A stretch of 64,000 bases of DNA from Rhea pennata (Eukaryota > Chordata > Aves > Rheiformes > Rheidae): positions 5,022,001 through 5,086,000 of the forward strand of contig NW_026907675.1 in the NCBI RefSeq assembly GCF_028389875.1, written 5' to 3'. Below are positions 30,478-52,920 of this stretch, piece after piece. The position numbers and the translations under genes are program-made. Numbering within the stretch: the first letter of the stretch is position 1; every line of letters starts with the position of its first letter. The notes under the pieces were generated by a model. The model saw only the letters and a program-made list of their open reading frames with translations, was not told the origin of the DNA and did not search any database.

Positions 30478-30478
30478 A

Positions 30479-30510
<32 letters not shown>
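30478..30510. repeat. (GAAA)n microsatellite
   Basis: About eight perfect tetranucleotide units in a POLE intron, close to the 30642-30550 exon. Confidence 0.95.
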
Positions 30511-30511
<1 letters not shown>

Positions 30512-31759
30512 TAGTTATTCAATAGTACAGCAGGCAGAGGAATACTGACCAGATCCAAATCTTCTTTGGGGACAGTTTCCAGCTTTGAAATGTTCCCTTG
30601 AAACTTCTTGGAGAGGAAGGATGACACTTCTCGTTCGCAGCCCTGCAAAGAAACTGGAGAATGAGCAACAAAGCCAGACACTTCTCCAGAGGAGAAGACA
30701 AGCTCACAAGAGGTTCTGGCACTAGTGTCCTCAATTGTGAGGGGAGGACACGAGGCTGTCCTGAAATCCTGGCCATCTGGAAATCTGTTCCTTCACACTG
30801 GGGCTCTCTTTGATCGTCAATTCACAGCACCGTCAGAACAAACCCAGTTTTGCAGCACGAGCAGGATCAAGACGAGATGAGAGGGGAAATTTACCCCTGT
30901 TTGGGCTTAGAAGAAGTGAAATAGGCTCCAGAGATCAATTTTAGGACAAAAAAAGAACAGGAAAAATATGACAGCTCCTTGAAGGGATAATTCATCACAT
31001 AACAAACCAACTTCCCTCTAAGAAACCTTAGTGGAGCCACCATACTGATACAGCTGCTTCCCATCTCAGGTCTTCTCTAACAGCTCTGACAAAACCACCA
31101 ACAGAAGCACTGGAGCTGTATTTTTCTCCTACCAACCCAAGAAGATGGTCGGTCACAAGGCCTCTCAGCTGACTGGGGGACCCTTCAAGTCAAACCTGCC
31201 CTTGTCTCTGGGACCTCGGCCACTAGTTTACTCAAGACCCCGCTTGCCAGTGCGCAGCTTCCAAGTCCATACTCGCCTTCTGGGTAGCGATGTAGAAATA
31301 CGGCTCATAGGGCAGGGCCACCCAGGAGAAATCAAAACCGGTGAACATTGCGCGACCCCGCAGCCAAGGTGAGAAACCAACCCAACGGTTCCCAACGGAA
31401 GCAACGGGCACCGCGCTGCCCTTGCTGCGCGTTGCTGGCATTTGTGCGCCACACACACATCCCTGCATCTCTGCAGCACCCACATTGGCCCCCAAGGGTC
31501 CCAGGTGGACCCAGCGTAGGGCAGACAGCGCTGCTGCCTTGTGGGTGATGCCTGGGGCCCAGAACAGCCAAACCGGTGGGGGCAGGCAGGACACCCAGCC
31601 CGGGCACCAGCGCTGCACTGGAGGAACGGGATGCACCTCGAAGCAGCTCCATCCTCCGGGATGAAGTAGTCCACAGCGCTCACCAGCCGCCGGTCCTCGC
31701 CCAGCACCTCCGTCTGCACATGCACATGGCCTGTTACGACACACGACCCCCCCCCGCCC

Positions 31760-32045
31760 CCTCCCACCCCAGTCCTACCGGGTGCCTGTCGGTGACACCT
31801 CCCCTGCCCCAGTCCTACTGGGTGTCTATTGGTGACACCTCCCCTCACACCCAGGTCCTACCGGGTGCCTGTCGGAGACATCTCCCCCTCCCGTCGGTGA
31901 CATTCGCCCCCCGTCCTACAAGGTGCATGTCGGTGACCCCCCCATCGTTGTCCCCCCTAGTCCTACCAGGTGCCTGTGGGTGACACCCCCCGCCGGTGAC
32001 ATCCCCCCCCCGGCCCAGTCCTACCAGGTGCATGTTGATGAGCCA
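31760..32045. repeat. Minisatellite built on the POLE exon 2 splice donor
   Basis: Six imperfect units carry the core tcctaccaggtgcatgt (as read on +) followed by a gtgacacccccc-like spacer. The unit nearest the gene (32019-32035) is the true exon 2 end and GT donor of POLE on the minus strand. The others repeat the exon-end-plus-donor motif into the intron. Unit spacing is irregular, at roughly 40-60 bp. The inverted arm at 50495-50618 carries two to three units of the same repeat. Confidence 0.85.
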
Positions 32046-32160
32046 GCCCGTGCGCTCGCCAGGCTCCGTGGGCCGCTCGAAGCCGAACAGTGTGTCCAGT
32101 CGCTCCGTGCGCTGCGAGCGCTCCAGGCGCTTGAGGGAGGACAGCGAGGAGCCATCGTCC

Positions 32161-32698
32161 CTGCAGGACGCCGGGCCGCCAGCCGCTGCCCAGTCCCCGC
32201 CGCGACCCACCACCCCCCCCCCCCACCTCCCGCTGCCGCCTGGCCCCAGTGCTCACTGCCCCCCCCAGCCGCCGCCGCCGCCGCCGCCGCCGCCGCCCGG
32301 CTCCGCGCCGCCCCGCAGCACCATCCCGCCGCGGCCGGAGCAGCCCCGCGCGCTGCCCCCACCTCCCGCGAGCGGGAAGCCTGCCAGCCCCGCCTCCCCA
32401 GGGAGAGCACCAATCAGAGAGCGGCACCGCAGCCAATGGTCGCTCTCTTCCTCGACCTCTGCCCCGCAGCACGGCGGCTGCGCTGGCCACGCCCCTCGCG
32501 GCACCTTCCCGGGCAGGCCCCGCCCCCGCCCCGGCTGCCGCTGCCGCGCACGCGCCTGCGCGGCGGCGCCCGGCGCGGCCCGACCCGGCCCGGCCCGGCC
32601 CGGCCCGGCCCGGCGCGGTGCGGCCTGTCGTGGGGCGGCGGCGCTGCGCGGGAAGCGGCTGCTGCTCCTGAAGCGGCGCCGTCGCAGGGGCAGTTGCG
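32161..32698 (-). promoter_or_regulatory. POLE: GC-rich POLE promoter and CpG-island region
   Basis: This stretch is extremely GC- and CpG-rich. It contains a GCC/GGC run that encodes the exon 1 glycines (32268-32300) and a GGCCC pentamer array (about 32577-32620). It reads as a TATA-less housekeeping promoter for POLE on the minus strand, cut off upstream by the LTR at 32699. No first exon of the usual neighbour PXMP2 is recognised here. Confidence 0.65.
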
Positions 32699-33333
32699 TG
32701 TCATAAGTTACTCTCTTGAAGGTCAATTCATACAGAGAGTTTGTTAAATCATGTGAACAATTTATTTAATTAAGTAAGCAGCCACAAGCAAAACAGCGCT
32801 GGGCGGCCGGGGAGTCTCAGCTCCGCCAACGGCGCGCGCCTCCCTCACACACAGTCCCCCCTTATAGTCTGCGTTGTAATCTCCCGGTGCGTCCCGCGCA
32901 TGTGTGAGTTGCTGGGGGGGTCGTCTGAAGCTCTCTGGTGGTCGTGGAGAGGAAGGCCGTGCTCTTCTTCTGCCTCTTTATTTTGGTTTGTCTCCTTGTG
33001 AGTGATCACAGGGGTTTGCTTATCTGTTGTGTTGACTCCCTTTTGGGATGCTGTTCTGTGAGAAAATTACAGGCGCCTGCTTATCTTTTCTTTATCCTTT
33101 TACCTTCAAAACCTCTGAGCAGCTTGTTGCTTACTTCAGCTCTTCATAGTCCTGCAAGATAGCTAGGGCCCCGACACTGGTTCCACAAGGGGTTATATAA
33201 GCTTTTGTGCTTACCATAATTTATTTGTCTGACACCATGTCTCAACCCTGATTGTTGTAAAACCTCCTCCTCCCCCTCCATCGGCTTATTCCTCCTTCTA
33301 AACAATGAACAAAGAGTTACAATTTATTACACA
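32699..33333 (-). mobile_element. Solo LTR fossil, avian endogenous retrovirus (copy 1)
   Basis: A 635 bp element, read on the minus strand. It starts TGTGTAAT and ends TTATGACA (TG...CA termini), with a TATAAG box and an AATAAA near its 3' end as expected for U3-R-U5. No internal retroviral region adjoins it. The right flank (POLE promoter) is shared with copy 2 and the left flank is not. I see no matching target-site duplication. The LTR looks whole; the family was not identified further. Confidence 0.75.
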
Positions 33334-33611
33334 GAGGAAGAAGAGGCGCTGTGCCCCAAAGCCCTGTGTTAGGAGTAGCACAGGCTTTGCTTGGAGCCGG
33401 GCGAGAGCGCGGCTGCTGCCGTGTGGGGCAGCGAGAATAACTGGGCAGCGCTCTCCGCGCCTGGGGAGGCTGTGAAACGCAGCGCAGCCGCGCGAGGCAG
33501 CCGTGCACGCGGCCGTGTGCCGCGCTGGAGCGCGGTGTTAGTGCGGGCGGCCAGGGCAGTGCGGGGGTGCTAGCGTGTCTCTTCTTTCTCCGTGCCCTCG
33601 TCTCGGCGTAG
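33334..33611. other. Junction sequence between LTR and first ADCY10-like exon
   Basis: GC-rich sequence with no recognised exon. It would be intron of the ADCY10-like gene if the upstream exons were removed at the LTR breakpoint. Confidence 0.5.
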
Positions 33612-36241
33612 GGAGGCAGAGCGGTTTCTGGCGCAGGCGGAGCAGCTGCCTGCGGTGCCCGGCCAGAGCAGAGGGACGCCCGGGGCCGCGCGCTCCTGCG
33701 AGTGCAAGGCCGTCGTGGAGCTGGTGCTCGTGCCCCTGGCTCACCACCACACAGCAATGGGCAACGATGCCAGAGCCCTCTACTACCTGCTGGAGAGCGC
33801 GGCTGCCTGCTTGCACGTCTCCGACAACTACCTGGTGAGTTGTCCTGCATGCCAGAGGCCGCTGCACGTGGAGGCCTCTCGGTGGCCTTGCCCAGGGCAA
33901 GCCCATTTCCCCCCTGCACTAGGACCGGCCTCTGTGGGCCCTTGGGGGCGAAGGGCTGGGGTCGGAGCCGGGGTTTTCTTCCTGCTTGCCTGTCCCGGGG
34001 CAAGAGCCGCGGGGCAAGGGAGCGGGACCTTCGCGCGAGGTGCCCAGCAGGGAGGCGGTGCGGAGGAGTGCTCGTGCCCGCGGCGTGCGCTGGGGTGGCA
34101 TCGGCAGGGGCAGGGGCACGGCCTCCGCGGGGAGCTGTGCAGGCGGGTGGGAGTGCTGGGGCTGGAGGCAGGCTCCGCAGCGCCGCTCACCCGCTCTCCG
34201 TGCGCTTGCTCCAAGGCCTTCACGAGCCTGCGCAAAGCAGAGGCCCTGAGGAGCTCGGCGGCTCAGAAAGCCCCGGTGCCGGCCTGCTTTGAAGAAGCCA
34301 CCTTCCTGAGCCTGCAAGGGGAGGTAAAGCGGCAGGGCGGCCGCGAGGGCTCTCGGGGCGGGAGGAGCGGGATGCCGCGGTGGCGCGGGGCAGCCGGCGG
34401 GGGCGGCGGGGGGACACCTCTGGCACTTTGAGGCCCGGCCGCAGTGAGCAGCCCTGCCTGCGACCGCCGCGTCCTCCGGCCCCAGCCGGTCGAGGCCCTC
34501 GGCCTCGCGTCGGGCAGGGTCGGGAAATGTGGTGGGAGCTCAGTCAGAGCCCTCGGGCACCGCCTGAAGAAGCCTTCTCCTGGGCAGGTGTGCTACAACG
34601 TGGGACGCGTGGAGCTGGCCAAGACGACCCTCAGGAAGGCGCTGAGCCTGCTGGGCCGGAAATTCCCGGGCACCTCGGCTGGCGCCTTCTTTCAGCTCCT
34701 GCTGGAGCAGTCGGCGCACGCCTCTCACCAGAAGAGCAGAGGCTCCTGCCCTCCCGCAGAGGCAGGGTAAGGAGCTCAGGGGGAAGAGACGGGCAGAAAG
34801 AGCCCTTTCCTTGCTGGTGCTGAGCCCCTTGGCCACCAGCTGCCTAGGCTTAGGGCTAGAGTCAGGTCCTGGCGAGGGCGACGCTGCGCAAGGCGCTGGG
34901 GGCTGCTGTCGGGGGAGGCGGGCTGTGTCGTCTCGAGGGGGACGGCGCGGGTGAGAGCAGAGGGGTGTTAGCGGGGAGCACGGGCTGCAGAGGGAAAGGG
35001 AGTGTGCAGGAGGGAGCAGGCGGTGGGCCCGGGGGGAAGCGGAGGCGAGGGGCGAGGAGGAGGGAGCTCAGGGCTCGCAGCCGGGTGCCAGCCTGCCGCA
35101 CAGCACCCCTTCTGCTGCCGGTGCCCGGCTTTGCTGGGCGGCGCGGGCTGTAGTGCCGTCGCGTCCATGCGAGCAGTCACCTTTCCCCGGGGTGCTTCTC
35201 GGTGCTCCTGTATCCGCCCCTGCAGCCCTGCCTGCCCCAGCCGCCTCGTGGGCCTCGCGCCTCCCCGGCCCTGCCGGACTCGGCCCCACGTGGCTCGCGG
35301 CTGCAGCTCAGCAGTTTCTCTTGCATGGCAGGACGGAGAGGCTGCCCTGGCTGTTCCAGCAGAGCCGCTGCCTTTCCTTGCTGCGGCAGCTCTTCAGCCT
35401 GGAGAACACTTCCAGCGGCCGGAGGCTCTCGCTCCTCGCAGCGCTCATGAGGGTCAACGCGGCCGAGGAGTCCGAGGACGCGAGTCACGTGAGTGCCTTC
35501 TCCGCGCCGCAGCAGCCGCAGCAGGCGGCTGCACGTCCGACACGGCTCCTTTCCCCCGGCCTGGCAAGAGCAGCCGCAGGGTCTGCCCCGGCAAGGAGAG
35601 GCCAAACAGGACGGGGATGTCCCCGTCCCGGGACTTCTCTCTGCGAGCTCCCAGGAGACGGGGCTTGCTGTTCTTCTGGGCTGCTCCTCTCATTGGATTT
35701 GTGTCGTGACTGTCACCCTTGGGCAGGCTGTGGCTGTGGGAGGCGTGCGAGTGAAAGAGAAGAGCAAAAGTGGCGGTGGGGTTTGTGGCCCTCTAGGCCT
35801 GAGAGTCACCCTGGCGAGATCCAGTCTTGTGCATTCTGCTGTCTGGACCTTTCTAGATCCTCGCGTCCTACCTGGAATATGTGCAGTGCTGCCAGGAGCT
35901 GGGCCGCCAGGAGGAGCGGCTGGAGAGCGGGCGGGCGGGCGGCCATCCAGCTTAGCTCCGGCGTCGAGCCCTTTGGAGGAGGAGGGGCGTTAACCGCGGC
36001 AGAACTGGCCCAGGCCCTGTCCCGTCTGCACCTCAGCCTGGGAAATCTGCCCCTCTCTGTTGACGTCGGTAGGTGCTGCCCCGGCTCCCTGGGAGAGGAG
36101 ATCTCTGCGGAGAGAGCCTCTGCGAGTCGGCTTCATTCACTCATTCATTTATTTCCCTCTGCAGTGCACGGAGCTGGAGAAGCCCGACCTGGACCGGGAG
36201 CTTCCAGGCACGCTCTTCACGGCGCTCTTTCTCCAGATGAG
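33612..36241 (+). pseudogene. ADCY10: ADCY10-like C-terminal helical-repeat fragment
   Basis: Soluble adenylyl cyclase (ADCY10) has N-terminal cyclase domains and a long C-terminal TPR-like part; only the latter is present. Exons: 33612-33834 (HHHTAMGNDARALYYLLESA), 34216-34323 (CFEEATFLSLQGE), 34588-34766 (VCYNVGRVELAKTTLRKALS), 35332-35488 (ERLPWLFQQSRCLSLLRQLF), 35857-36068 (ILASYLEYVQCCQELG) and 36165-36241 (ELEKPDLDRELPGTLFTALF). All have GT-AG borders. The assignment comes from memory of avian adenylate cyclase type 10-like proteins. The piece is 5'-truncated close to the LTR and 3'-truncated before NUF2. Within 35857-36068 the frame shifts in a GGGC repeat: EERLESG reads in one frame, while AELAQALSRLHLSLGNL reads in another. 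No catalytic domain is present, so no cyclase activity is expected. Confidence 0.65.
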
Positions 36242-36786
36242 GTAATGCTGCCGCTGGGCACGGTGCGGTGTCGGGGGGCCACCGGAGATCCTTTGGGCCA
36301 GGGTCACGGGAGCCTTTCCCCGGAGACTTGTTGCCAAAAGATGAGTGGGTGAAAAGAAGAGCGATGGGAACTCCCCTGGAGGTTCTCCAGGAGGAGCACA
36401 GAAGGGGGAGAGACGGGTGAGGAGAAGCGGGGTGGGACGCGTGCCAGGGTGCGGAGTTGAATCCCACCGCGCGGAGCTGCTCCCTGGGGCTCACTGCGTG
36501 CCTCCCCAGTGCCCGGAGCGTGCAGGAGCGCTCTCCAGGCTGGAGAAGCAGGTGGCTGGAGAGCCCGGGATCGCCGGGCAGGCGTGCTGCTCCTCCTGCT
36601 GCCGGGACCTCGCAGCGCGTGGAGGGGGCCGGGGCCGGGGGGCGGTCCCGCCGCGCACGGCTGCCGCTGATTGGCTGCGGGGGCGGGGCGGAGCGCGGGG
36701 ATTGGTCCGGGCGTAGAGGAAGTGACGACTGGGCGGGGCGGGGCCGGCGCCGGGTTCAAAGGGCGGCGGCGGTTGGCGGCGCCGCC
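36242..36786 (+). promoter_or_regulatory. NUF2: GC-rich region upstream of NUF2
   Basis: No exon is recognised. The last 200 bp are strongly GC/CpG-rich, with GGGGCGGGG (Sp1-like) boxes and an ATTGG/CCAAT motif near 36668 and 36700. This is consistent with a housekeeping promoter just before NUF2 exon 1. Confidence 0.5.
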
Positions 36787-38641
36787 GTGGAGGTGCTGAT
36801 GTTCCGGCGCTGCAGCCCCGCCGACATCGCTACCTGCCTCCGCGGCCGCGTCCGGGCCGGCTGCGAAGCCCGCAGCCTGGCCAAGGGCGACCTGTTCCCC
36901 GGCCCGAAGGTGCGGCGGGGCAGGGCGGGGTGGGCGCTGAGGCGACGCGCGGGCTTTGGCCCCCCGCGGCGCGGGCGGGCGGGGGGGGCCGGTGCCCCGC
37001 AGCTGTCAGAGCGCGCGGTGCCGCCGCTCGTGTTGCGGAGCGCGGCGGAGCGGTGCCGCGCGGCTCCCTCGCCTCGGGGCGGTAGCGGCGGGGCTGCTTT
37101 TCGGGGCGGCCCGGGAGCCCTGCGCGGTGCGGGTGACACGCTGGTTTGTGTCTTTGCTTTCGCAGCCTGAAGTCTTGCACGTGATTTTCATGAGAATCCT
37201 GCAGAAGGTGTACGGGATCTGCCTGGAGCATTTCTACATGGTTTGCGTGCAATGTGGTGGCTCACGTACAGTGGAACGTGTGGGGCAGATAATAAATGTT
37301 GGCTGTAGAGATGAAATGTTGAAGCGTTGCTCTCCTTTGCGTGTCGTGAGGTCAGGAGGATGCCGCCAGGAAGGTACGGTTTTCCACGTGCTGACAGAGT
37401 GAGGAGGAGCTTGGAAATCCTGCCTGTGCTGCAGAAAGCCCAGAGTGTTGGAGGCACTGTGTAGCGTGGGGATTTGCTGTGTGCGTGTCCAGGGAAGTGG
37501 CTGCTGTGTGTGCGTAGGCAGGGATGCGAGTGCAGTATTGCGGCATAGTCCTTGCAGTAGGTCCTTTGCTAGAGACCTGTTTGAAGCAGGAGTATGATGT
37601 GTGTGCGGACTGTTGCTGTGGCACGGCTGACTGCACCTGAGAATCAAAGAAGATTCTGCCTGTTTTCTGGGAGTTTGGTTCAGGTCAAGGCGCCTCTCAA
37701 AAGAGTGGGGTTTGGGTGTGCTGCATCCGAGTTGCTCTTTTTTCTTAAATAAAAAAATCTTTGTTTTGATGGTTTTGTTCTTTGGGGCTGGTTTCTTCTA
37801 GGGGGTGGGGTGGGGTGAGGGTTCCTCCTCGCTTCCTGCCCTGTCCGGGCCTCTGCCTTTGGCCCCGGTGGGAGGAGGGTGCCAGCTCCGAGGGGCCGTG
37901 GGCGCCGTGGAGAAGGGCAGTGAACGCTGCCTGCGGAGCTCGGCCCGCTGCAGCCGTGCGTTTGCCGCGCAGCGTCCGAGGGTGGCTGTGGCTGGTGGCC
38001 TCGGCAAACGGATGCCGTGCTGAGGTGAGGCCAAGCGCATCTTGTGCCTCCGCCACGCAGGAAGTTATTCCTGGAAGCCCGTGGGAAATGGTAGTCTCGG
38101 GGCATTTGTGGATAGCACGTGCTCGTGGCAGCTCAGCTGTTCGTGCGCTGTCACGTTGATTGTCGTCGTCCTGTTACGGCGTGACCAGCCCAGAGCGGTG
38201 CTCGAGGCAGTCTGCTGGCAGAAGCGAGGGCAGCCTTCGGCATCCGTTGAACAGAGCTGTGAGTCAGCTCGCGGGCCAAAACGTAGCAGAGGAAGAGCTG
38301 GGACTCGTGGTGTTGTGGGGGGAGCCGAGCAGCTCCTCTTGCCAAGGGGTTCGTGTTTGTGCGACTCGGGCCTGAGCTCCGCCGCGAGAGGCGGCCTGCG
38401 TGCGGGGCGCCTGACGTGGCCGCAGCGCGCTGTCTCCTTAGGGTCGGCTGCGTTTCCTTGCCCTGAGAGGGAGAGGTTTTTAAGCTGAAATGTGCAGGCT
38501 TAGGGAGCAGTTCTGGCTTCTGGGTGGCACTGTCTGGGGAGCATTTTTCCAACGGCCTTGTTTTGCAGCCTCTGGACAAATCCTAGGACGTGTCTCTCCA
38601 GGGTGAGTTTCTGTTACTTGGCAGTGACTATGTGGAGGTTT

Positions 38642-38691
38642 TCTTTCCTTCCTCCCTCCCTCTGTCTTCCTCCCTCCCTCCCTCCCTCCCT
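38642..38691. repeat. (CTCC)n pyrimidine-rich repeat in NUF2 intron
   Basis: TCCC/TTCC tetranucleotide units forming a polypyrimidine run. Confidence 0.85.
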
Positions 38692-41600
38692 TTTTGTGTG
38701 TGTTTCTGGAGGGGAGGGTGTTTCATGCTTGGAATTTACTAGAGAGAAGATGCATGTCCCGCAGATGGAGCCTTAGCAGCTTGTGTTCCCCAGGGGTGCA
38801 AGACCATCAGGCGTGTCTTCAGTCTGAGTGATGTTCTGTTGTGGAGAAAACCTGCCTGTTTCCTGGAAGTCTGCTGTGCCTGCGTATTCACTCTGCTCTC
38901 TTTCCTCTTTAGATGCCCGTCAACATTGACATCCTGTATCCCCAAATATTTGAAGGCTTTCTCCCTGTTTGTAACTTGTTTATTCACATGTAAGTACACA
39001 AGTTTGTATCTGTTCGGTTGTTACTTCTTCCAAGGCTTCAGTTCAGAGGGAATGGGAGGGGGGGGGATGAGGGCGGGTTGTTTTTTATTTTTTTTTTTTG
39101 AGCACCTGTGAGCTGGTGGTGGCTGCAGCGCTCTCTGTGCTCTCTGGTTTGGAGCAAAATGAAATTTGCAGGCGAGCAAGAGGCAGCAAGGTTGTAATAG
39201 AAAAGAAAACCTTGGCAGCTGTCTTTTGTCTAAATCGATGCGTTACCTTTACTGTGAGGACTAGGAGGCTGCGTTAGTGACTTGATTTAGAGGGTGGGGG
39301 AGTGAAAGGGTGGGTTGGAGCGCCTGGGGGTACCGCGAATGGCCAGAAGTTCATCATCATACCCAAAAAGGGGTTTGAAGCCCTTGTTAGGTGAACTTGC
39401 CCCCCGAATTCAAGATACCTTTGCTGCAGCGATGGGAGCGTTAAACACTAATCTGTGCAGGCGATCGTACTGTGTTAGTCTCCTGAGAGGACTTGTTGTT
39501 GTTGCGTGCTTACTGCACCTGGGCTCTGGGGTAAGAGGAGAAAATCTCTTTTGAGTGAGCGACTATAGCACAAAAACTGCAATGGTGGCTGCAGATAGAT
39601 CTATGTTTTGCTTCCTTGCAGGGAGCGCTTTCTCCCGGTGTGCCGTGTTAATGACTTTGAGATTGCTGATGTTCTAAGTCCAAGTAAGCAAGTGCTTGTG
39701 ATGCTGTCTGTCCTGTGTGGGAGTGTAGGGGGATTGGGGTGGTGGCACTTGACAGGCAGGCTGCTTTCCTGCCCGCTTGGCACTCGACTGCTAGTAGTTT
39801 GTCCATCAAGCTGTGGCACTCTTGAAATGGTGTGGGAATACGTGGCCGTGGAAAGTAGCCTGAACTCTGGAGTTCTCTCTGGATTCCTTAGGCAAATACC
39901 TCCGCAGGGAGCGGTTAGATGGTGAAAGCTGCTCTTCCGTCTCCGCGGTTCCCAGCTGCGGCGATTCTGCTGCGCCGCACAGCTTAGGACAGGCTGTTGT
40001 GAAGAACGCTTTCACTTCTGGGTCTGTCTTAGCTTGTGAGAGTGTTGCCCGTTACTGATGTTCCTGCTGGGGGGGCAGAGGAAGACAAGCCCTGTTTCTG
40101 CGATCCCTTGCCTCCTCTGTGAACTATGCTTGGCCCACCTTTTCCTAAGTGATTGCAATATGCATGGAGACCAAAACAGTGGTGACTTGCAATTCTAATT
40201 TCAGAAGCAAAGAGGACAGCTCGCTTCTTGAGTGGCATTCTCAACTTTATACATTTTCGAGAATCACGCCGTGGAGTCTACTTGGATTTACAGGCGAACT
40301 ATGTAAGATTCGGGGCTGTGTTACTCCTGATGCTTGCTAAAACATAAGTAATGTTAACCTCAGTTTGAGAACATAGAGGTTGTACTTCTTAATTGCATGT
40401 TTTAGAAACACGCTGGGGTTTTCCTGTGGGTTTAGAGATGGTGTGTTTCAAGTGAAATACGTGATTAGCAGAGCTCAGAGAGAACCCAAAATGTAAACGG
40501 TGTTCCCCTAGAATAAAAACATCTCCACGTAATTAACTTGCAGAAATGAGCTGTGGAGAAACTGCAACAGCTGGAGACAGCAAATCAAGAGGCAGCAGTG
40601 AAGCTGGAGAAGCTGAAGTGAGTATAAGGAGTAGGAGCTGAGTTGCACTAACCTTCTTGGCTAGCTCTCCTGTTCCCAGTGCATGTGTGGGGTGTGCAAC
40701 TGCGAACTTACTAGTTGAGCTTTGTGGTTTGATAGAGCAGACCGAGAACAACAGGCTTCTCTGCACCTGGTGTAGATAGTGGACAGCCCAACCGGTGCTC
40801 AGAAGTTTGGCCCCTCTACCTCCCTTCTGCTTGTCTGTGACAGCCGAGGTGGTAGTTCCTCTTGGACTAGTACTTGCTTTGAGTAATGGGTGTGGGCTTT
40901 GGTGTGTGTGGGACTAGCTTGCTGTGAAGGGCAGACGGTGTAGAGGCAGTAAGCTGAGACAGTAGTTAGCTTTGTTTCTCGACAGTGAAACATATCTTGC
41001 TTTCCTAGGAGAGTTTTCTTTCAAACTGTCCACCTTCTCTCCCTTACCCCATCACACGTTCTCAGCATGTGCACCTCCATGCTTTGTAGCTTGGTTCTCA
41101 AAGCGAAGTAATATTTTTGAGCTTTCCTCCAAGCCTGTTTAGCTTAGTCTGGGCAGACTCAGCTTCTCCACTGGCACTTGACTTTGCTGTTTAGCCTCTT
41201 TGGGAAGCAAGCCCGGAAGCATAAAGCAGTTTCTGTTGGGTTGTGCCCTGTTAGAGGAGGGGCTTGTCTGGTGAGAGGCCAGAAGAGCTGTTGTGAGCAA
41301 AGAATAAGACTTTGGGAGTGCCTGGTTGCTGTGAGAGGAAAACTGTATTTTGTAGCTCAGAGACTGTGGTGGATCTTTAATTTGAAACCATCATTTTGAT
41401 CGTCTAAGCTCTTAAGGATGAATTCTTTCTAGAGTGGTTGTTCTAGCCTCACTAATCTATCAATTTCACTAATAATGCTGAAACTGTCAATATCTCAGTG
41501 TGTGGTTGTGTTATTTATTTATTTACGTTTGCTTAGCACTGTTCCTGTAGAAGAGCAAGCAGAGTTCAGGCAGCTGTCTGATGACATTCAGGAATTGCAG

Positions 41601-42066
41601 CAACTGCTAAACCACGACTATCGTCGGAAAACGGTATGATCTCTTTACCCCTTTCTCTGGAATGCTGCTGTAGCTTCTGATCACAGGTGTTCCTTATTTT
41701 TGTGTTGGTTTTGTTTGTTTTGTCCCCTTCCCCTACTTTTGTGAAGGATAAAGAGGACTTTTCTGGTTTAAGACAAAAAAGGTATTACAACACCGCATTC
41801 TTTTTAATCCCTCCCCTTGCCTCTTTGTTTACCCATAAGTGATGTGAAACATGCTTGGAATCAGAGCTAGGGTCTTTTCTTTTGAAATACATTGTTGTGG
41901 TGAATGGAGAGGCACCTCTTTTCTTGTTGAAAGTAATATGTATGTTTTGCCGTGAAATTTTTGATTTGTCTTGCAATAGAATATGAAGGGTTTACTCAGA
42001 ACTGAGGGTGAACTATGTTGGGAAATAGACTGAGGCCTAAGAAGGGTTACTTAAGGAAAGACTCTT

Positions 42067-42117
42067 AAAAAAAAAAAAAAAAAAAGAAAAAAGAAAGAAA
42101 GAAAGAAAAAAAAAATA
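42067..42117. repeat. A-rich/(GAAA)n tract in NUF2 intron
   Basis: An A-run of about 20 followed by GAAA units, between the seventh and eighth NUF2 exons. Confidence 0.9.
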
Positions 42118-43053
42118 AGCCAAGGTGGTGTTGGTAGGGAAGAGTGCTACTTTCCAGCAAGGGCAGCTTTCTTCTAGGTCTCGCAGGTAACCTTTTCTGT
42201 CACTTCAGAGAAATGAAAATCTGGTTAGTATTTTTTTTGGAGGTGCTACTGTAAGCCGTCTGTCTGCTTTTAATATTAACCATGTTTCACCTTCTTATTA
42301 CTGGAGACCTGGTGTATTAATGTAGGCCTTCTCAAAGTAAAAACATGACCTCTGGCAAAGAAGATTGGGTGTGTGTAACAAACCACAAGGGCTGATGAGA
42401 ACAGAGGAAGTAAAATGGCACCAGTATTTGCTGGTAGGGATGGAGCTGGGATGGCAAGTGAGACATGCAAGCATGCCGAAAAGGCTTTGGCGTGGTAGTA
42501 CAGAGAAGGGTGCTGATAGCACTGCGTAGTACAGAGGTAGCTGTTTTGGCTCTTGGGAGCTATGGGCTGTGTTCTTGTTTTCTGCGCTGCCTGCCCACTC
42601 TGATGGAGAGAACCTTCCGAAGTTAGTGCCATCTGTCACCCCTACTCCAAGTCACCTACGGCTGCCTGCCTCCTCGATGCTCCCAGTGGCTTTTCAACAA
42701 TGTTTTCCTTCCCTATATTTTAAGTTTCTACAGACTGCTATTTTATCTGCTAGTTGTGGCATTCCAGAGAAACTATCAGTGAGATTTAAATAGCAGTGAG
42801 GTGTACGACCTTAACTGTGGCTTGCATCTGGGAGATTAGCTTAGTATAAGGTAGCTCTTCCCCTGAAAGAGTCTTAACCCACACTAGGGCAATTGTCTGT
42901 TCTGTTGACAGGTCTAAGCTGGAAGAGTAAAGGAGGTAGCAGTTGAAAAGATGTTCCTGTTGTTTGTTGCTTTGTTTCTTTTCTTGTTAGACAGCTTTGC
43001 AAGAAGTGATCTCACAAAAAAAGTCAGATATTGCGGAGAGGACCCGAAAATTG

Positions 43054-45005
43054 GTGAGTGTACCTTGATATAGGCTATAGTTTAAATTCCAGTTCAGCTA
43101 ATTGATCATCTTTCTGCCTTTAAGATCAGGTTAGTCTTGGAGCTTGGTAACGTGATCGTTCAGGAGATGATTTTTAGCTTTTTAAAAACTGTTTCAGCTT
43201 TGCTTTTCCCACAGAAACTTTACTGCAACTAACTGGTGATTTTTTTTTTTTTAGCCTTTACAGACTTCTCTGATATACGCGTGAACAAACACACGTCTGT
43301 CGCCCGTTAGACTGCGCCTCTGCGTCCACTCTTGCCTATTTGGGGCCTATGGATTAGAGGCAAGATCACTTCTTGGTAATTTCACTTTTGATTCACAGTC
43401 TGCAGACAGGTCACACTGTAATGGTTATAAGATAGCCTGTTTAGCATGCTTAATGGAATTTTATCATGCTTTTCCCTTATATTTCACCAGATCCCGCTGG
43501 TGTCGGACGAAGAAGCCAGCGTCTGGCACGTGGAGTTGCTGTGTGTTTTCATGCAGGCAGATACCTCCCTAGGCAAATGGCAGTGTTAGGCAAATGACAG
43601 GATTTTATTTGCACCTCCCTTTATTCTGGTCTGTATATACACTTTGGTATCAAAACACAAGTCATTTCCAAGAATACTTTGATAATGTGTAGGCAATACG
43701 TTTTATGTTAAAAGATTCCAGCTTCAGCGATATATGATACAAACCTTAAAATTCAGGAGGATTTTCTAGGTCTGTAAGGGGACAAACATGCAAAATGTTC
43801 CTAAACCAGTGGCGGTGTAGTGGGGTCCCACTGCAGGAGGACAGATGGCATCTTTTCACCGTTGCTGGTGTAAGAAAGGAAGAAAACAGGACCCGGTGGG
43901 ATCCCAGGTTCCTGAAAGCCCTAAATGAGCAAAACGCTTCAGCCCGTGCTAATCCAGCGTGATTGAGGCCCGCTCCGAGCAGCCCTTAGGGTCGGGACCA
44001 AACCTACCTGCTGATGCCAGTTGTGGCGCATGAAGGATCTGGGTGCTCGTCTGCGCAGGGCAGGTGTTGGCATTGCCCCTCGCTGGCCTGCAAGGGGCTC
44101 GTGGGGCGCTCAGGAGAATCCGAGAAGTACCTGCTACAGGAATTAGACGCCTCTGGAATTTTAGCGACTGGTCAAAATCCTCATTTAGGCCATTAAATCG
44201 ATTTTTGGATCCAACCGAGGGGCGTCTTTTTTTTCAACAGTTACAAAAATGCCAGATTATTTTTCCCCCAAAGTGTCAGTCTCTGCATTTAACTGCGACA
44301 TGTGGATGCTTCTTCTTTATAGTTTCTCTGGGGAGAAAATTTGTTTCTTTCTTATTGGGCTCCCCAGGTTTAAGGGTGGGGGGGGCACATGCAAGCTTTT
44401 CAGAAACTCAAAGCTTAAACTTAAACTCTTGTGCTTGCATTAAGGCTTGGAAACAGGTGACCTGGTTTCCAGCAGCCTTTGGCCCCCACTACTGCTCACC
44501 AACTGGAGCCCTGGGCTTCTGGTGACAGGAGCACCCTGCTTTAGAGCCTAGATGTAAATATAAGATCCTGACTTGACAACCCTGTTTTTAATCTCTTTGC
44601 TCATATACCTGCCTTTGCACAGCAGAAGATTCTCAGATTCTTTGGGGCACCAGTGAGGTCTTGGGGCTGGTCCCAGCAAGCTCTGCTGGGTTTTGTGGCC
44701 CAGAGACCTTGGTAAAGGTAAACTCCCTGGCTACAGCACAGTTCTGGGGCCTTTCCTGTGCATGGGACATAATTGCTCAAGCCTGTTTGTAGGACGTGGT
44801 AGGCCCCATGCTGATCCTGCTTTTCAGCGGGTGTCATATGGTACAGGAGGAGTGCTAATGCTCCTGGTTGGCAGATAGGCACTGTCCACAGTTCTAGTGG
44901 CAACTCGATATTTTGCCACTGATGTCCTGCGCCCCGGTGGAAGAATAAATGTGGAGGCAGCAGAGTGAGCAAAACTGTAACACAGGGACTTTGTTCTCCT
45001 GTAGT
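43054..45005. other. No gene recognised after truncated NUF2
   Basis: The later NUF2 exons should start here but none was found on the plus strand. A splice-acceptor-like stretch near 43490 opens a short frame (IPLVSDEEASVW) that does not match NUF2. 43770-44530 has no recognisable family. The 3' end of LRRC52 on the minus strand follows. Confidence 0.5.
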
Positions 45006-45011
45006 TTTATT
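45006..45011 (-). terminator. LRRC52: AATAAA polyadenylation signal of LRRC52
   Basis: A canonical AATAAA on the minus strand, about 115 bp beyond the LRRC52 stop codon. Confidence 0.5.
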
Positions 45012-45123
45012 TTGGTTCACAAAAATCGCTTCTGGAGGGGGACGCACAATTTGCAAAATTGGACAGGAAGGACCTGGTTTCAAGTCTCGGGACAGGCATT
45101 CAGAAGCTTCTCCAGGGCCCGTT

Positions 45124-48100
45124 CTAAGTGGTTGTGTCTTCCTCTTCATCCTCCTCCCCTTTTGCAGTGTGGAGTTCATCTATCACTGCACAGATGCCAG
45201 CCAGCCAGGCTGCCACAGTGCCAGCTGAGAATATACAGAAGCCAACGAGACACAGAAAGATGTAGTCCTGCTTGTGCAGTTGGATCAGGCAGTCCAGCTG
45301 GAGCTGTGCCTCCACTGCGGGCATTTTCAAGCCGCGTAGACCTTCTGGCATGTAGCAGGTGATGTTCTCGGCACCTGCAGAGGGAAAAGCAGAAGCAAGA
45401 CTAACTTGTCCGTGCCCTGAGCAATAGTGGATAGGAGTCCTGCTAGAAAAGCAGTGGAGGAGTTTCGTAAAGCCTTTGAAAAATGTCTCCGCACTTCACA
45501 CTCCTTTCCCTGAAGAGCCTGGGTGAAAATACGTAGTCCGTCCCTTGCCAAACCAGGTAGCCAGAATGATCAGAACGATTTCTGTGTTATTGTCGCGATA
45601 GGAAAATACTGCCGGTTGGATTATACCGCAGTGGCAAGCTGCTGTACCTGCGCTGTTGAGTTCTGCTAACTGAGCACCTTCATTTTAATATAAAAGCTCT
45701 TGTGATTTTTTTGAAAAAACCTTAAACATCTTCTGCCATGCCATAGGCTAAGCTGAAAGAGGTTGTTTTATGCTGGCATAGTGAGGTCTGCATCCACAGA
45801 GTCAAGCTGTGAAACCTGGGTTGTTTGCAGTTAGGGGTCACCGAGCTTGTTGTGTGAAAGAAAAAGAGGAAAGTCCTCAGTAATTCAGTTCCGCCGAAAT
45901 AATGACTGTGCTCTGCCGTATTGTAGTCTAGGCCGTGAGAAAACAGGTGCTGGCTTTTCCCTCTGGAGCTAGTGAAGGCTGGGCATAGTAGGAAGCAATG
46001 TCTCTTCCTGGTGTTTGTAGAAGGCCAGTGTGGCCTCCAGCACAGCCGCCTCCTTCCCCTGGGGGTTTTGAAATCAGTGCGACAGACTCGGTTACTGCGA
46101 CAGAACCGTGTCGGTCGCTGCTGGAAGTGCTGGATGGGTGGTCCTTCTTAGGGAAAGGGAGCAGGGGAGAGGGACGAGCAACAATTTATACTGTATTGTG
46201 TTATGTTGTATTTTGTTATACCTTGACGAGTGGATACAGCTGCAGAGACCGTTGGTGCTGTTATCGCTCGCTGTCAGGAGCGTAACTGCGGGGCTCGTTC
46301 ACCCTTACCCCAAGCCGTCGAGCTGTGGGAACTTCCCGCCTGCGCCTCGACCGTGCGCAGCTCCTGCTGAGCGTAAAACACTGGCACAAAGTGGTCTGTG
46401 AAGCTGCAGTGGCTCTCTAAAGGCCGGGACAGGGATCTGCTTGCAGCAGATTTCAGTGCTCTGCGTTGCCCCTCAGTTCCGTCTGTCCCACTGTCCCTCT
46501 GCTAGAGCTGTCAGCTCCTGGGACAACCCTCGTTTTAGGGCCGCCTAAGCCTGACAAACAGGGAGTTGCTTTTCCCTGCCTGGATGCAGATAGGCGCACG
46601 TGATCCGGGGTTCCCAGCATGGATACACTTACCTGCAGCATTAAAGTTTACCCAGTTCTCACACCAGTTCCAGGAAATACAACACCTCGTGCTGACTCAC
46701 CCGCAGCACCTGGCTGGGACATAGCAGCAAAGTCTGACAGAGGAGGAAACTGGAGCTGCCTCCGCTGGCTGCTGCTGAGTCTTTCCGCTCTTTCTCCCCT
46801 GCCCTGACACGTGGAAGCAGGGAGACGGGTCGTTTCTTCCCAGCCCTGGCGCAGTCTATTCCATCTCCTCCCAGCCTCATCAGAAAGGTTTCAGTAGGTG
46901 CCTTGGTCTCTTTCCCATCCTTCCCGGGATTGTGCAGGGACCCACACGAAGACGTCCAGTCCTCGCTGCCACTTGCTTTTCTGCTCGTAGCCTTCCAAAC
47001 CGCCTGCAGTGAGCTTTACTCTCCTGTTCAGGGCTTCCACGTGTAATCTCCAAACTACCTGGCGACTGCTAGGGGTAGGACTTCTCTACACTGTTCCATA
47101 ACTGTCTGTAATCTGTATGAGGACAATAAGTACCTTTACAGGCATTTACTACGCCTATTAAGACACTCAGACATCCCTAATTCTGTTCTGTCCTAACACC
47201 AGCTTCCCTTGCCCTTCCTTATGGTTCTTTTCTGCCTTTTTCTTACTTGATGGACAGGTTTTCTCAAATTTCTTTTTTTTTTTTTCCCAGCTCTCCTTCA
47301 TTATTTTATTGTGAATTACTGAGGATCAAGCTTTTTTCATTGGTGCAGTGATGTGTTCCTTTTCAATTTGGAAAATCAAATACAAATTTCATAGCTGCAT
47401 AACAAATTTTTACGCTTGGGACTAGTGTTTCTGTGAAAAAGGGAACCAGTGATTACTTTGCCTCATGAATATTCAATATCTGTGGTCCAGCTGTAGACTC
47501 TCTCAATAAGATGGAAAAGAGCTGGATTTTGGTGAGCCAGATGATGGAAGGAAAGAAGGCTCCTGCCTTCAGTAAACTGCTCTTACTCGGGAGTAAGTGC
47601 CTTTCTGCTGCAGAAGTCAGAGGAACTCAAGCGAACGCTCATCTGCAATGCATGTACATTGATTATTTTGGATAACTTAAAACAAAAGTGAGCCAATTTG
47701 CTCTGGGATGCTGGAGGAAGAGTGGGAACATATGAAGCCCGTCAGTCATAAGGATACAGGGACGCTTTTCTGACCACAGTCTTAACTTGCATTCTGTTTC
47801 ACCCTGTCAATCGCATTTCACCGGTACCCAAACCAGAACCCCCCATGGGAACAGCAAAAGTCTTTTGCCGAGTTCAGAGCATTTGGATCACGGCTTGATC
47901 CTGAGAACCTGTCAAATGTACCTGCTTTGACAGCTAGAAGCACTGTGATAGCTGGAGGTTATAGGAACTGTCGTTTCGATCTGCTTTAGCACAACAGCTG
48001 CCATATTTTTTACGGAAAAAGGCATTGCAGGAGGCGTTTGAGGTGAAGGGGACACTGGCAGAACGGTGGGCAGCTCAGGGCTGGAGAGGCTGAGCAGAGC

Positions 48101-48731
48101 AGGACAGAACAGAGGCAGGAGCAGAGCACTTCCCGCATCTCCACGGAGAGAGGGGTTTTTAACGGACTGTTATGGACGCAGCGATACTGCAGCAGCAACA
48201 AAAAGATACAGTCTATCGAGCAGCTGAAGAAAAGGCAGGAAAATCAGAGCAGTAGCCTTCTCTGCAGCTCTCCCCAGAGCCTCCTCGGGCTCCTCACTCT
48301 TGGCACTGCAGCTGTAAGGTGCTTGTGACTCGCAGTGACAAAAGTGATAACAAGCTCGCAGTGATACCGCCTGCAGCTGGGGCAGGCACTTTATAGAAGT
48401 AGCAATATCCTAGCTACTGGTTACGCTTCCCGATGCGTAAAGTGAAATCCAGACCATCCCCCAAGAGGTTCTCCCGGCAGTCCAGATAGACCAGGTCAGC
48501 GAGGAAGCTCAGTTCCACTGCAGGCAGGTATGAGATCTTGTTTGCTGCCAGAATCAGCTGCCTGGTATCCAGTGGGATGGTCACAGGGAGCTCTTGCAGC
48601 TGTTGCCCTGTGCAGTTCACTTCCAGGTACTGACAGCTGCACCTGCCTGGGCAGTTGATAGTCTCTGATGCCAGCCCCAGCCCCAAAAGAAACATGAGGC
48701 TCAGGGGCTGGTGTCCACCTGGAAGAGACAT
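45124..48731 (-). pseudogene. LRRC52: LRRC52, two exons, leucine-rich repeats mostly missing
   Basis: LRRC52 is a single-pass LRR membrane protein, an auxiliary gamma subunit of BK-type/SLO3 potassium channels. Exon 1 starts at ATG 48731: signal peptide (LSLMFLLGLGLASE), LRRNT cysteines (INCPGRCSCQYLEVNCTG) and one or two LRRs (LPVTIPLDTRQLILAANKI, LADLVYLDCRENLL). It then runs LRIGKRNQ into a stop at 48414-48416. Human LRRC52 continues with roughly 100 more codons of LRRs and the LRRCT. Exon 2 (45374-45124) is intact: ENITCYMPEGLRGL, the transmembrane stretch DYIFLCLVGFCIFSAGTVAA and an acidic tail, ending at TAG 45124-45126. The expected splice partner and repeat body of exon 1 are gone, so the copy is probably dead. 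An assembly gap closed without Ns is the alternative. Confidence 0.82.
45375..48413 (-). other. LRRC52 intron plus deleted exon region
   Basis: No exon is recognised in this 3 kb. The LRR body of LRRC52 exon 1 would be expected next to 48414 but is absent on either strand. A T-run lies near 47273-47285. Nothing else stands out. Confidence 0.5.
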
Positions 48732-49232
48732 GATCTAACACCTCCCAGAGTGCCCGGCCCCTTAGGGAGTACAGACAGACAGGCACGGAGGAGCTGCAAA
48801 GGAGGGGACCTAGGGAAGTGGTTTCGTCATTACAGCCATGCCGACGAGATGTCCAGCGGCAAGGCTGTTGGGAAGCGCTCTGCTTCTGTGGCTCACCTGG
48901 CTCCTTGGCAGCCTGCCTGGCTGGAAGCGGAGCCGGGTTTCACCCACTTTCTGGATCTGCAAGTGCAGGGCGGTGGCTAGAGTGTCTCCATGTCACGCTC
49001 ATTGCCAGCTGACACCTCCGTGATGTCAGCAGCTTGCAAAAGCCACCTAGTTTGGGGACACTGACATGACCGGCCTTGCTGAGCCCGTGCTGCTTTCGTC
49101 GGAGTGAAAGCGCACGCCTGTAGGCCTACGAGGCAGGTGCGCCCTGGATGAGGACACCAAGTGTGTGCAGGGCCGGTGTGAGCAAATGCAGTTGCTGTCA
49201 CAAATAATGTCAAAAGCCGAGGCGTGGTCATT
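48732..49232. other. LRRC52 upstream flank to LTR breakpoint
   Basis: Sequence 5' of LRRC52 running to the LTR. A 61-codon plus-strand frame at 48838-49023 begins with a hydrophobic stretch but matches nothing I know. Confidence 0.5.
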
Positions 49233-49864
49233 TGTGTAATAAATTGTAACTCTTTGTTCATTGTTTAGAAGGAGGAATAAGCCGATGGAGGGGGAGGAGG
49301 AGGTTTTACAACAGTCAGGGTTGAGACATGGTGTCAGACAAATAAATTATGGTAAGCACAAAAGCTTATATGACCCCTTGTGGAACCGGTGTCGGGGCCC
49401 TAGCTATCTTGCAGGACTATGAAGAGCTGAAGTAAGCAACAAGCTGCTCAGAGGTTTTGAAGGTAAAAGGATAAAGAAAGGATAAGCAGGCGCCTGTAAT
49501 TTTCTCACAGAACAGCATCCCAAAAGGGAGTCAACACAACAGATAAGCAAACCCCTGTGATCACTCACAAGGAGACAAACCAAAATAAAGAGGCAGAAGA
49601 AGAGCACGGCCTTCCTCTCCACGACCACCAGAGAGCTTCAGACGACCCCCCCAAGCAACTCACACATGCGCGGGACGCACCGGGAGATTACAACGCAGAC
49701 TATAAGGGGGGACTGTGTGTGAGGGAGGCGCGCGCCGTTGGCGGAGCTGAGACTCCCCGGCCGCCCAGCGCTGTTTTGCTTGTGGCTGCTTAATTAAATA
49801 AATTGTTCACATGATTTAACAAACTCTCTGTATGAATTGACCTTCAAGAGAGTAACTTATGACA
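49233..49864 (+). mobile_element. Solo LTR fossil, same family (copy 2, inverted to copy 1)
   Basis: A 632 bp element from TGTGTAAT to TTATGACA. TATAAG lies at 49701-49706 and AATAAA at 49798-49803, about 97 bp apart, giving a U3-R-U5 layout. The right flank is the POLE promoter, identical to that of copy 1. The left flank is LRRC52-side sequence. No target-site duplication joins the two flanks. The LTR looks whole and no internal region adjoins it. Confidence 0.75.
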
Positions 49865-50618
49865 CGCAACTGCCCCTGCGACGGTGCCGCTTCGGGAGCA
49901 GCAGCCGCTTCCCGCGCAGCGCCGCCGCCCCACGACAGGCCGCGCCGGGCCGGGCCGGGCCGGGTCGGGCCGCGCCGGGCGCCGCCGCGCAGGCGCGTGC
50001 GCGGCAGCGGCAGCCGGGGCGGGGGCGGGGCCTGCCCGGGAAGGTGCCGCGAGGGGCGTGGCCAGCGCAGCCGCCGTGCTGCGGGGCAGAGGTCGAGGAA
50101 GAGAGCGACCATTGGCTGCGGTGCCGCTCTCTGATTGGTGCTCTCCCTGGGGAGGCGGGGCTGGCAGGCTTCCCGCTCGCGGGAGGTGGGGGCAGCGCGC
50201 GGGGCGGGATGGTGCTGCGGGGCGGCGCGGAGCCGGGCGGCGGCGGCGGCGGCGGCGGCTGGGGGGGGCAGTGAGCACTGGGGCCAGGCGGCAGCGGGAG
50301 GTGTGTGTGTGTGGGGGGGTTGGGTCGCGGCGGGGACTGGGCGGCGGCTGGCGGCCCGGCGTCCTGCAGGGACGATGGCTCCTCGCTGTCCTCCCTCAAG
50401 CGCCTGGAGCGCTCGCAGCGCATGGAGCGGCTGGACACACTGTTCGGCTTCGAGCGGCCCACGGAGCCTGGCGAGCGCACGGGCTGGCTCATCAACATGC
50501 ACCCGGTAGGACTGGGCCGGGGGGGGGTGTCACCGGCGGGGGGTGTCACCCACAGGCACCTGGTAGGACTAGGGGGGACAACGATGGGGGGGTCACCGAC
50601 ATGCACCGACATGCACCT
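49865..50618 (+). pseudogene. POLE: POLE promoter and exons 1-2, inverted orphan copy
   Basis: Exon 1 is 50209-50270 (MVLRGGAEPG, glycine run two residues shorter than the other copy). Exon 2 is 50370-50505 ([31 protein letters not shown]). Both have GT donors and exon 2 has an AG acceptor. Exon 2 ends INMHP as in human, whereas the 32025 copy ends INMHL, so this arm keeps the ancestral residue. No further POLE exons follow on this strand: P2RX2 sequence comes next. Any transcript would encode only about 65 residues of POLE. Confidence 0.92.
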
Positions 50619-50671
50619 TGATTTAACAAACTCTCTGTATGAATTAACCTTCAAGAGAGTAACTTATGACA
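50619..50671 (+). mobile_element. 53 bp LTR 3'-end fragment (third copy)
   Basis: Matches the last 53 bp of the two LTRs, ending at the same TTATGACA terminus, with very few differences. It sits exactly at the distal end of the inverted POLE arm and at the start of P2RX2-side sequence. Confidence 0.85.
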
Positions 50672-51597
50672 ACCACCACCTTCCCCACAATCCCCGCTCC
50701 AGCAGCATCACACTTTGGCATGCTCATACTGCTGCCCAGCCCAAAGGCTTCATCAGTGGCAAGGGTAGGAGGAGAAGCTGCTCTCTGCAGAGAGCCCTCA
50801 AAACCTGCACACCTGGACCCAATCCCAGGCTGGCACCCCGCCTCTTGCAGTCGGGCTGCTAGGGTATGGCTCTGACGAGTTCCCGCTGGCGTCTCTCTGC
50901 CATGCATGTCTCCACTCTGTCTGAACCCTGCTGGTACCTCCACCACCTCCCGTGGAGCAACTCTCTCCAGTTCAGGGCCACCAGACAAGGAAGAGCTACC
51001 TTTTCCCTGCTTTAACCCATTCTGCCACCAGTTTCACTGCATCACTCCAGTTCCCCTGCAACATTTGGTGAACAGGAGCTCGACACACAGCTCACCCACT
51101 ACTTTCTTGGTCCTGTAGCCTGCATCGCCCCTTTCTCCTCTCCTCGAACCTGGCAACCAGATGTCCTACCTCTGCTCCCCAACCCTTCCTGCAGCCTCTG
51201 TCTGTCCCCTGCTGGCAGCCCTGTGCCTTGCCTGCCAGTCCCTTCCCTCGCCTCCAAGCCCTGTCCCTCATCTGCAGCCCCCGTCCCCTGCCTGCAGCCC
51301 CCATCCCTCGCCTGCAGCCTCTTTCCTCTGCCTGCTGCCCCACCCGTGGTGCTGTGCTGTGAGTGCCAGCTCCAGACTTATCCACTTGCGTCCGTGCTGA
51401 CCATGCCCGTCCCTCACCGTGGTCCCCATGGCACAGCAGGGGTTGCGTCCGTGCTGGGCTGGGGCTGTGTGGCAGCTGTGGGGCGTCGTTGGTGGTGGGG
51501 TGGGGGGGGGGTCAGTCCTTATCGCTCCAGTGGTTCCCCGAGCTGTGCCATGCCGTGCCGTGCCATGCCGTGCTGTGCCATGCTGATCACGCCAGCA
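50672..51597. other. P2RX2 5' flank with degenerate repeats
   Basis: No exon is recognised. About 51160-51345 is a degenerate tandem array of roughly 23 bp units (ctgcagcccc..tcccctcgc type). 51546-51590 is a TGCCATGCCG-type repeat directly before the P2RX2 start. A G-run lies near 51500. Confidence 0.6.
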
Positions 51598-52087
51598 ATG
51601 GGTGCCCGGGATTGCCTGTGGGCGCTGTGCAGCTACTCCACCCCACAGGTGATGGTGGTGAGGAACGGGCACCTCGGCACCAGGCACCGTGCGCTGCAGC
51701 TCCTCGTCCTGCTTTACTTGGTCAGGCGAGTGCGGGGCTGGGAGCTGCTGCCTCCCGGTGGGGCATCGCTGCCGCACGGTTTATCCCTGCTCCGCACACA
51801 GCCCCTGCGCAGCCCCACAAGTTGCCAGGGCAGCTTCTCTTGCCTCTGCCGGGAGAGGGGGAAGGCGATTTCAGCTAAAGCCATAGTGCTGCAAGAGGCG
51901 GGGGGCGCAGTGTCTCTGTCCTACCCTGATGGTGATCTCCCCGTGCCCTGTCCCATTGCTCCAGTCCCTTCACATCCTGCTCTAAGGGCCACTTTTCTTG
52001 TACGCCCCCGACTGGGACCCCTGCAGGGGTGCTGTCCCTGAGCCTTGTGCCATTTTTCCCACGTGGCCTGCACACCTGTGGATAGCA

Positions 52088-52811: not shown

Positions 52812-52920
52812 GCTGGAGCATTGCAGTGCCAGATCCCAGGGACTTCCAGAGCTGCAGGAGATGGATGACAGGTGCCTGGTGAACAAAGTAGCCGAGCAGA
52901 GCCCTTCCCATCCTGCCTGC
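52812..52920 (+). repeat. Diverged internal repeat, unit 2
   Basis: Partner of 52088-52200; same order of shared blocks. Confidence 0.5.

What the first reader, a model, noticed from the sequence alone, without database searches (positions are those of the whole stretch)
31920..50618. Foreign 15.9 kb gene block held between inverted LTR+POLE arms
POLE-side sequence and the same LTR occur in opposite orientation on either side of a block with ADCY10-like, NUF2 and LRRC52 pieces. Both arms share the LTR-POLE side, but the far side of each LTR is unrelated, and no target-site duplication fits either LTR. This is what recombination between dispersed LTRs would leave, so the LTRs look like rearrangement breakpoints and not fresh insertions.
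Basis: partly seen in the sequence, partly recalled or inferred. Interest (0 to 1): 0.75.

Follow-up and report, generated by a model that had tools for sequence, protein, structure and literature searches.

The report
Retrovirus repeats joining amplified gene fragments
In a multicopy stretch of this genome, copies of one old retrovirus sit exactly where pieces of a POLE-containing repeat are joined to pieces likely taken from another chromosome; exchanges between the retrovirus copies probably made the joins, a known kind of event seen here in unusual detail.

Summary
A 15.9 kb block (NUF2, with ADCY10-like and LRRC52-like pieces) lies between inverted LTR+POLE arms (95.8% over 1,416 aligned columns). 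Both LTRs end exactly at their termini on unrelated host flanks, with no target-site duplication. Elsewhere in this genome the same host flanks occur in other pairings across the LTR: ADCY10-POLE, LRRC52-POLE, LRRC52-site 2, including proviruses with LRRC52 on one side and site 2 or POLE on the other. LTR-free versions of all four flanks exist. Against it: C8 has no LTR at either site; no unrearranged parental insertion was found (exact-pattern searches at POLE and LRRC52 only, no answered control); copies were sampled through these flanks, and the LTR was never surveyed genome-wide. The right POLE piece looks like a later insert, not a second simple exchange. New member of a known kind.

The parts
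8805..32698 (-). POLE gene, 5' end near 32.1-32.7 kb; exons recognised by eye down to about 8.8 kb
   Evidence: two exons by PDB matches, Pfam DNA_pol_B_exo1 E=4.5e-11; other exons by eye; intactness not tested
32699..33331 (-). Left LTR of a gammaretrovirus-like ERV; 3' end on the POLE promoter side, 5' end on the ADCY10-like flank
   Evidence: LTR-free site GTTGCG|GACCGG in 12 of 12 no-LTR copies read
33332..49234 (+). 15.9 kb block, likely C8-derived, with an ADCY10-like piece, NUF2 and an LRRC52-like piece
   Evidence: C8 matches at 95% and 98-99%; NUF2 by PDB; ADCY10 and LRRC52 names recalled
49235..49864 (+). Right LTR; 5' end on the LRRC52-side flank, 3' end on the POLE piece
   Evidence: no LTR on C8 at this place (L046)
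49865..50619 (+). POLE 5' piece (upstream region to intron 2), inverted against the main POLE gene
   Evidence: same truncated end in 5 copies (window)
50620..50671 (+). Third LTR remnant: 52 bp 3' tail of the same LTR, ending exactly at site 2
50672..55305 (+). Site-2 flank of the repeat unit, with a P2RX2-like exon near 51.6 kb
   Evidence: Pfam P2X_receptor E=0.0042, below the curated cut-off
55306..64000 (+). Start of the next tandem unit (copy of 1-8710, 99.4%)

Best explanation
Two different segments, a POLE unit and a segment likely from C8, were amplified on several contigs and carried insertions of one gammaretrovirus-like ERV. Recombination between these proviruses or LTRs joined the segments, with the C8 side on the 5' LTR end and the POLE unit on the 3' LTR end; some hybrid proviruses later collapsed to solo LTRs. 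In the window unit, LTR-block-LTR stands where two other units have a 2.7 kb spacer between POLE and site 2. A later repair event began in the LTR of an LRRC52-LTR-site 2 copy, copied across a POLE-linked LTR into 755 bp of POLE, and rejoined inside the LTR, leaving the POLE piece and the LTR tail. Shown: exact LTR ends, mismatched flanks, LTR-free sites, partner reassortment, proviruses with unmatched flanks, shared end of the insert. Inferred: original insertions at each site, crossover against conversion, order of events, the repair step, direction of copying from C8.
For: Of 17 POLE-LTR copies (40 of 236 candidates were scored, so a lower bound), the far side is ADCY10-like in 13 (12 read, 1 from coordinates), LRRC52-side in 2 and provirus interior in 2. 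Of 26 LRRC52-side places, 19 have the LTR, 6 do not (C8 included) and 1 was not read; the 19 lead to provirus interior in 11, POLE in 7 (window included) and site 2 in 1. Short samples beyond the 11 proviruses match the site-2 side in 7 and POLE in 2; 2 are still proviral. The far junction was read to the base in two of them (L107, L099). The POLE piece with LTR tail has the same end in 5 copies and is absent from L074. ERV type: TLV_coat, RVT_1, RVP and Gag_p30 in 3 of 4 open pieces searched.
Against: No unrearranged parental insertion was found: exact patterns for the missing end gave 0 at LRRC52 and 0 at POLE, with no mismatch allowed and no answered positive control. The ADCY10 pattern was sent and never answered; a site-2 pattern was never sent. 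C8 has no LTR at either site. ADCY10-LTR was seen only joined to POLE (13 of 13). Every LTR with a host flank read has the same polarity, which random exchange need not give; the sample was drawn through these flanks and the LTR was never surveyed genome-wide. In 4 of the 7 site-2 cases the second sample further out matched nothing.
Confidence: 0.68

Rival explanations
1. Aberrant retroviral integration: the two ends of one viral DNA were joined to two different places (LRRC52 side and site 2, say), bridging them without a target-site duplication; amplification then spread the join.
For: Exact LTR termini at all four host junctions; proviruses with unmatched flanks; no parental insertion found by the two exact-pattern searches answered.
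Against: Does not by itself give LRRC52 with both POLE and site 2, or POLE with both ADCY10 and LRRC52; at least one LTR or provirus recombination is still needed.
Confidence: 0.16
2. The arms arose as an inverted duplication of one LTR+POLE segment by break repair or template switching, and the LTR is a passenger.
For: The right POLE piece ends inside an LTR, with its other break in POLE intron 2, as a templated insert would.
Against: Explains the POLE piece only; both LTR-block joins are exactly at LTR termini, and L074 has the right LTR without the POLE piece.
Confidence: 0.1
3. Assembly artefact or collapsed repeat.
For: The region is a near-identical tandem array, where assemblies fail most often; no reads were available.
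Against: The same base-exact POLE-LTR-ADCY10 junction was read on six contigs (C18, C138, C139, C144, C147, C149) in copies that differ from the window by several percent.
Confidence: 0.03

Closest known systems
Hybrid HERV-K (HML-2) proviruses with different flanking target sites, made by recombination between proviruses
   Same: Provirus or LTR with two unrelated host flanks and no matching duplication; stated in PMC4425911 (passages seen), which credits earlier work. Hughes and Coffin 2005 was seen only as a reference-list entry; its content is recalled.
   Different: Here the same flanks reassort in three combinations within one genome's amplified copies, and the joins link two amplified host segments.
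K111/K222 HERV-K in human centromeric and pericentromeric DNA
   Same: ERV copies lie in duplicated DNA and recombine together with their flanks (PMC4425911, passages).
   Different: There the flanks are centromere-linked repeats; here they are a POLE unit and a gene-bearing segment likely from C8.
CfERV-Fc1(a) gammaretroviral lineage of canids
   Same: Gammaretroviral ERV; the paper uses matched target-site duplications as its test for inter-element rearrangement (PMC6407205, passages).
   Different: Its proviruses had matched 5 bp duplications; here none of the ADCY10 or LRRC52 flanks matches POLE or site 2.

Membership tests
Products of ectopic recombination between LTRs or proviruses | Element complete to its exact LTR termini on both sides | tested here: met
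   (both main LTRs; the 52 bp tail has only its 3' terminus)
Products of ectopic recombination between LTRs or proviruses | Host flanks unrelated and without matching target-site duplication | tested here: met
   0-2 positions match for ADCY10 or LRRC52 against POLE or site 2; exception outside the window: L027 against POLE, 5 of 6
Products of ectopic recombination between LTRs or proviruses | LTR-free version of each flank exists elsewhere | tested here: met
   POLE 12 of 12 no-LTR copies read; ADCY10 C8 + 6 array copies; LRRC52 C8 + 3 array copies; site 2 in L010 and L016
Products of ectopic recombination between LTRs or proviruses | Same flanks found with different partners | tested here: met
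Products of ectopic recombination between LTRs or proviruses | Parental insertions with target-site duplication, or reciprocal products | tested here: inconclusive
   0 exact matches for LRRC52 and POLE; ADCY10 pattern did not complete; site-2 pattern not sent; positive control did not complete
Gammaretrovirus-like ERV | Gamma-type Gag p30, protease, reverse transcriptase and Env domains | tested here: met
   3 of 4 open pieces of L027, searched as they stand, match; the fourth matches nothing
Gammaretrovirus-like ERV | tRNA primer site and polypurine tract next to the LTRs | tested here: inconclusive
   the adjoining bases were seen; the tRNA-His assignment is recalled, not searched

The most novel reading that the evidence does not exclude
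Cassette exchange between inverted ERV pairs: a spacer flanked by two outward-facing ERVs in the POLE unit was swapped, by paired LTR crossovers, for a C8 block flanked the same way, and this ERV family acts as a standing recombination handle that assembles and spreads chimeric segmental duplications. The polarity of every LTR read here with a host flank (C8 or once unknown sequence on the 5' end, POLE unit on the 3' end) is what such a swap would leave.
Probability: 0.15. Interest if true: 0.65.

Novelty: new member of a known kind. Interest (0 to 1): 0.45.

Why it matters
LTR-mediated exchange is often argued from single elements that lack target-site duplications. Here copies in one genome show LTR-free sites, proviruses with unmatched flanks, solo LTRs and reassorted flanks side by side, so the order of exchanges could be reconstructed. 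If it holds, one ERV family helped fuse two amplified segments into a new repeat unit carrying POLE.

Tried and rejected
Rejected: fresh LTR insertion (no target-site duplication; the LTR-free sites continue differently on each side). Rejected as the whole story: simple inverted duplication (L074 lacks the POLE piece). Rejected: artefact (base-exact junction on six contigs). Considered and not excluded: deletion from a full inverted POLE gene into a site-2 LTR; the orientation of the unit would need a further inversion, so a templated insert is preferred. Considered: a flip of the block between inverted arms. At C144:2.02 Mb and 2.21 Mb the LRRC52 side is next to one POLE copy and the ADCY10 side next to another. 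There the ADCY10-linked arms reach at least w31534 and w31420 and the LRRC52-linked arms w31520 and w31312, past the end of the window's right piece, so independent joins explain them as well. Led nowhere: paper searches for these gene combinations (one search listed 10 of 52 papers) and for ampliconic W-linked or similar repeats (listings only, no paper opened); Rfam (0 matches); a tree of POLE 5' ends, mixed, with no clear donor of the insert; a PDB search in the wrong frame, redone.
Full report
What is in the window. The window is G000:C138:5022001-5086000 of a 1.27 Gb assembly in 180 contigs. Bases 55306-64000 repeat 1-8710 at 99.4%, so the finding lies inside a tandem unit of 55.3 kb. The inverted arms are real: 31922-33333 against 49233-50607, 95.8% over 1,416 columns. 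Exact ends: left LTR 32699-33331, block 33332-49234, right LTR 49235-49864, POLE piece 49865-50619, LTR tail 50620-50671, site 2 from 50672. The two LTRs differ at 4 of 628 compared bases (where the ends were taken one or two bases off) and the two POLE arms at 15 of 738.

Genes. Two POLE exons match human POLE in the PDB and a third piece has a Pfam exonuclease match. NUF2 is confirmed. A P2RX2-like exon near 51.6 kb has a weak Pfam match (E 0.0042, below the cut-off). Whether any of these genes is intact was not tested.

POLE side. A search with 31900-32900 scored 40 of 236 candidates: 17 copies carry the LTR, 22 stop at the LTR edge, and one (C138, the preceding unit) is split over two rows. 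At the edge, 12 of 12 no-LTR copies read share the continuation GTTGCG|GACCGG: this is the LTR-free site. Followed outward, 2 of these 12 (L010, L016) have a 2.7 kb spacer and then site 2, CTCTGTC|ACCACCACC; 9 have a spacer of about 2.4 kb and then sequence matching 53811 or 53817 onward, the preceding C138 unit among them; L009 was not followed far enough. So the comparison 'spacer replaced by LTR-block-LTR' rests on the two site-2 units.

C8 side. A search with 33334-34833 scored 40 of 66 candidates: 21 copies at 97% or more on C18, C138, C139, C144, C147 and C149, one C8 copy at 95%, and more distant ones. Of the 21, 13 are joined to POLE through the LTR (12 read, 1 from coordinates), 6 have the native flank without LTR, and 2 begin at query base 50 next to a piece matching 13729-13872. 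C8 has the native flank and no LTR (L033). A search with 48033-49232 gave 26 places: 19 have the LTR; 6 do not (C8, L063-L065, and L080-L081, where the match ends at 49231 and no LTR follows); C144:2412007 was not read. On C8 the end 49232 (29705536) lies 12.9 kb before 33334 (29692678) on the same strand, so the block is not colinear with C8. A tandem duplication of the C8 segment, with a period of about 29 kb in the C18 and C149 coordinates, explains this.

Partners. The 19 LRRC52-side LTRs lead to provirus interior (11), to POLE (7, window included) or straight to site 2 (1, L074). Short samples beyond the 11 proviruses match the site-2 side in 7 and POLE in 2; 2 are still proviral 7.5 kb or more out. 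In 4 of the 7 a second sample 2 kb further matched nothing held. The far junction was read to the base in two: L107 (site 2) and L099 (POLE). Of the 17 POLE-LTR copies, 13 lead to ADCY10, 2 to LRRC52 and 2 to provirus interior. One host flank with several partners across the same element needs recombination in the LTR or provirus. None of the ADCY10 or LRRC52 flanks matches POLE or site 2 as a target-site duplication. One exception outside the window, L027, matches POLE at 5 of 6 bases, but its outer flank is not the POLE spacer; it is left unexplained.

Right POLE piece. Five copies (window, L082-L085) share the same end, CATGCACCTT|GATTTAACAAAC, then the LTR tail and site 2; L084 lacks a short local duplication that the other four have. 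L074 has a full LTR and site 2 without the piece. So the piece was probably copied into an LRRC52-LTR-site 2 join once and then amplified; loss from L074 by conversion is not excluded. At three places (C18 52-84 kb, C18 136-169 kb, C149 61-93 kb) this right join occurs, by coordinates, in a C8-type segment with no LTR at ADCY10, so the left and right joins are separate events.

Evidence against. The missing other ends were not found: 0 exact matches for LRRC52 and for POLE. These searches allow no mismatch and the positive control did not complete; the ADCY10 pattern did not complete and a site-2 pattern was never sent. Parental insertions may have been lost or mutated, or the first joins may have been made by aberrant integration. 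Every LTR with a host flank read has C8-type (or, once, unknown) sequence on the 5' side and the POLE unit on the 3' side; plain random exchange does not predict such polarity. The copies were found through the POLE, ADCY10 and LRRC52 flanks, so other insertions of this ERV were not sampled.

Literature. PMC4425911 (passages) states that some HERV-K target-site duplications were removed by recombination between proviruses, giving hybrid proviruses with different flanks. PMC6407205 (passages) uses matched duplications as evidence against inter-element rearrangement. Searches for these genes together and for ampliconic W-linked repeats showed nothing on this amplicon in the rows listed; no paper from those listings was opened, and only the held open-access library was covered.

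Verdict. The junctions are real and LTR-associated, and recombination in the element is well supported by reassorted partners. A new member of a known kind.

Noticed in passing
1-8710 and 55306-64000: 55.3 kb tandem unit at 99.4% identity; the preceding unit on C138 (L020) has POLE without LTR and without the block.
   Followed up: partly
L027:7988-9501 and L086: Unknown host sequence on the 5' side of a POLE-linked provirus, with a TSD-like match to POLE (5 of 6 bases) although the outer flank is not the POLE spacer.
   Followed up: partly
L022 (C144:1649000-1658500): Proviral interior on both sides of the second LTR: tandem proviruses sharing an LTR, next to POLE.
   Followed up: partly
G000:C142 (16 places), C21:3923932, C8:36821468: Diverged copies of the ADCY10-like sequence: 16 at 71-73% on C142 (capped list), and one each at 90% (C21) and 89% (C8, 7 Mb from the likely source).
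   Followed up: no
L039, L040 (C144:1756900 and 2396500): Sequence matching 13729-13872 of the POLE unit lies next to 33383 onward, a few bases apart: a different POLE-unit/C8 join without an LTR at it.
   Followed up: no
L010, L016 against L011-L015 and L017-L020: Two kinds of no-LTR unit: after the spacer, 2 continue at site 2 and 9 at 53811 or 53817.
   Followed up: partly
ADCY10 and LRRC52 LTR-free sites (L033, L046): Both 5' junction sites read TCTG|CA in the LTR-free state; chance or target preference.
   Followed up: no
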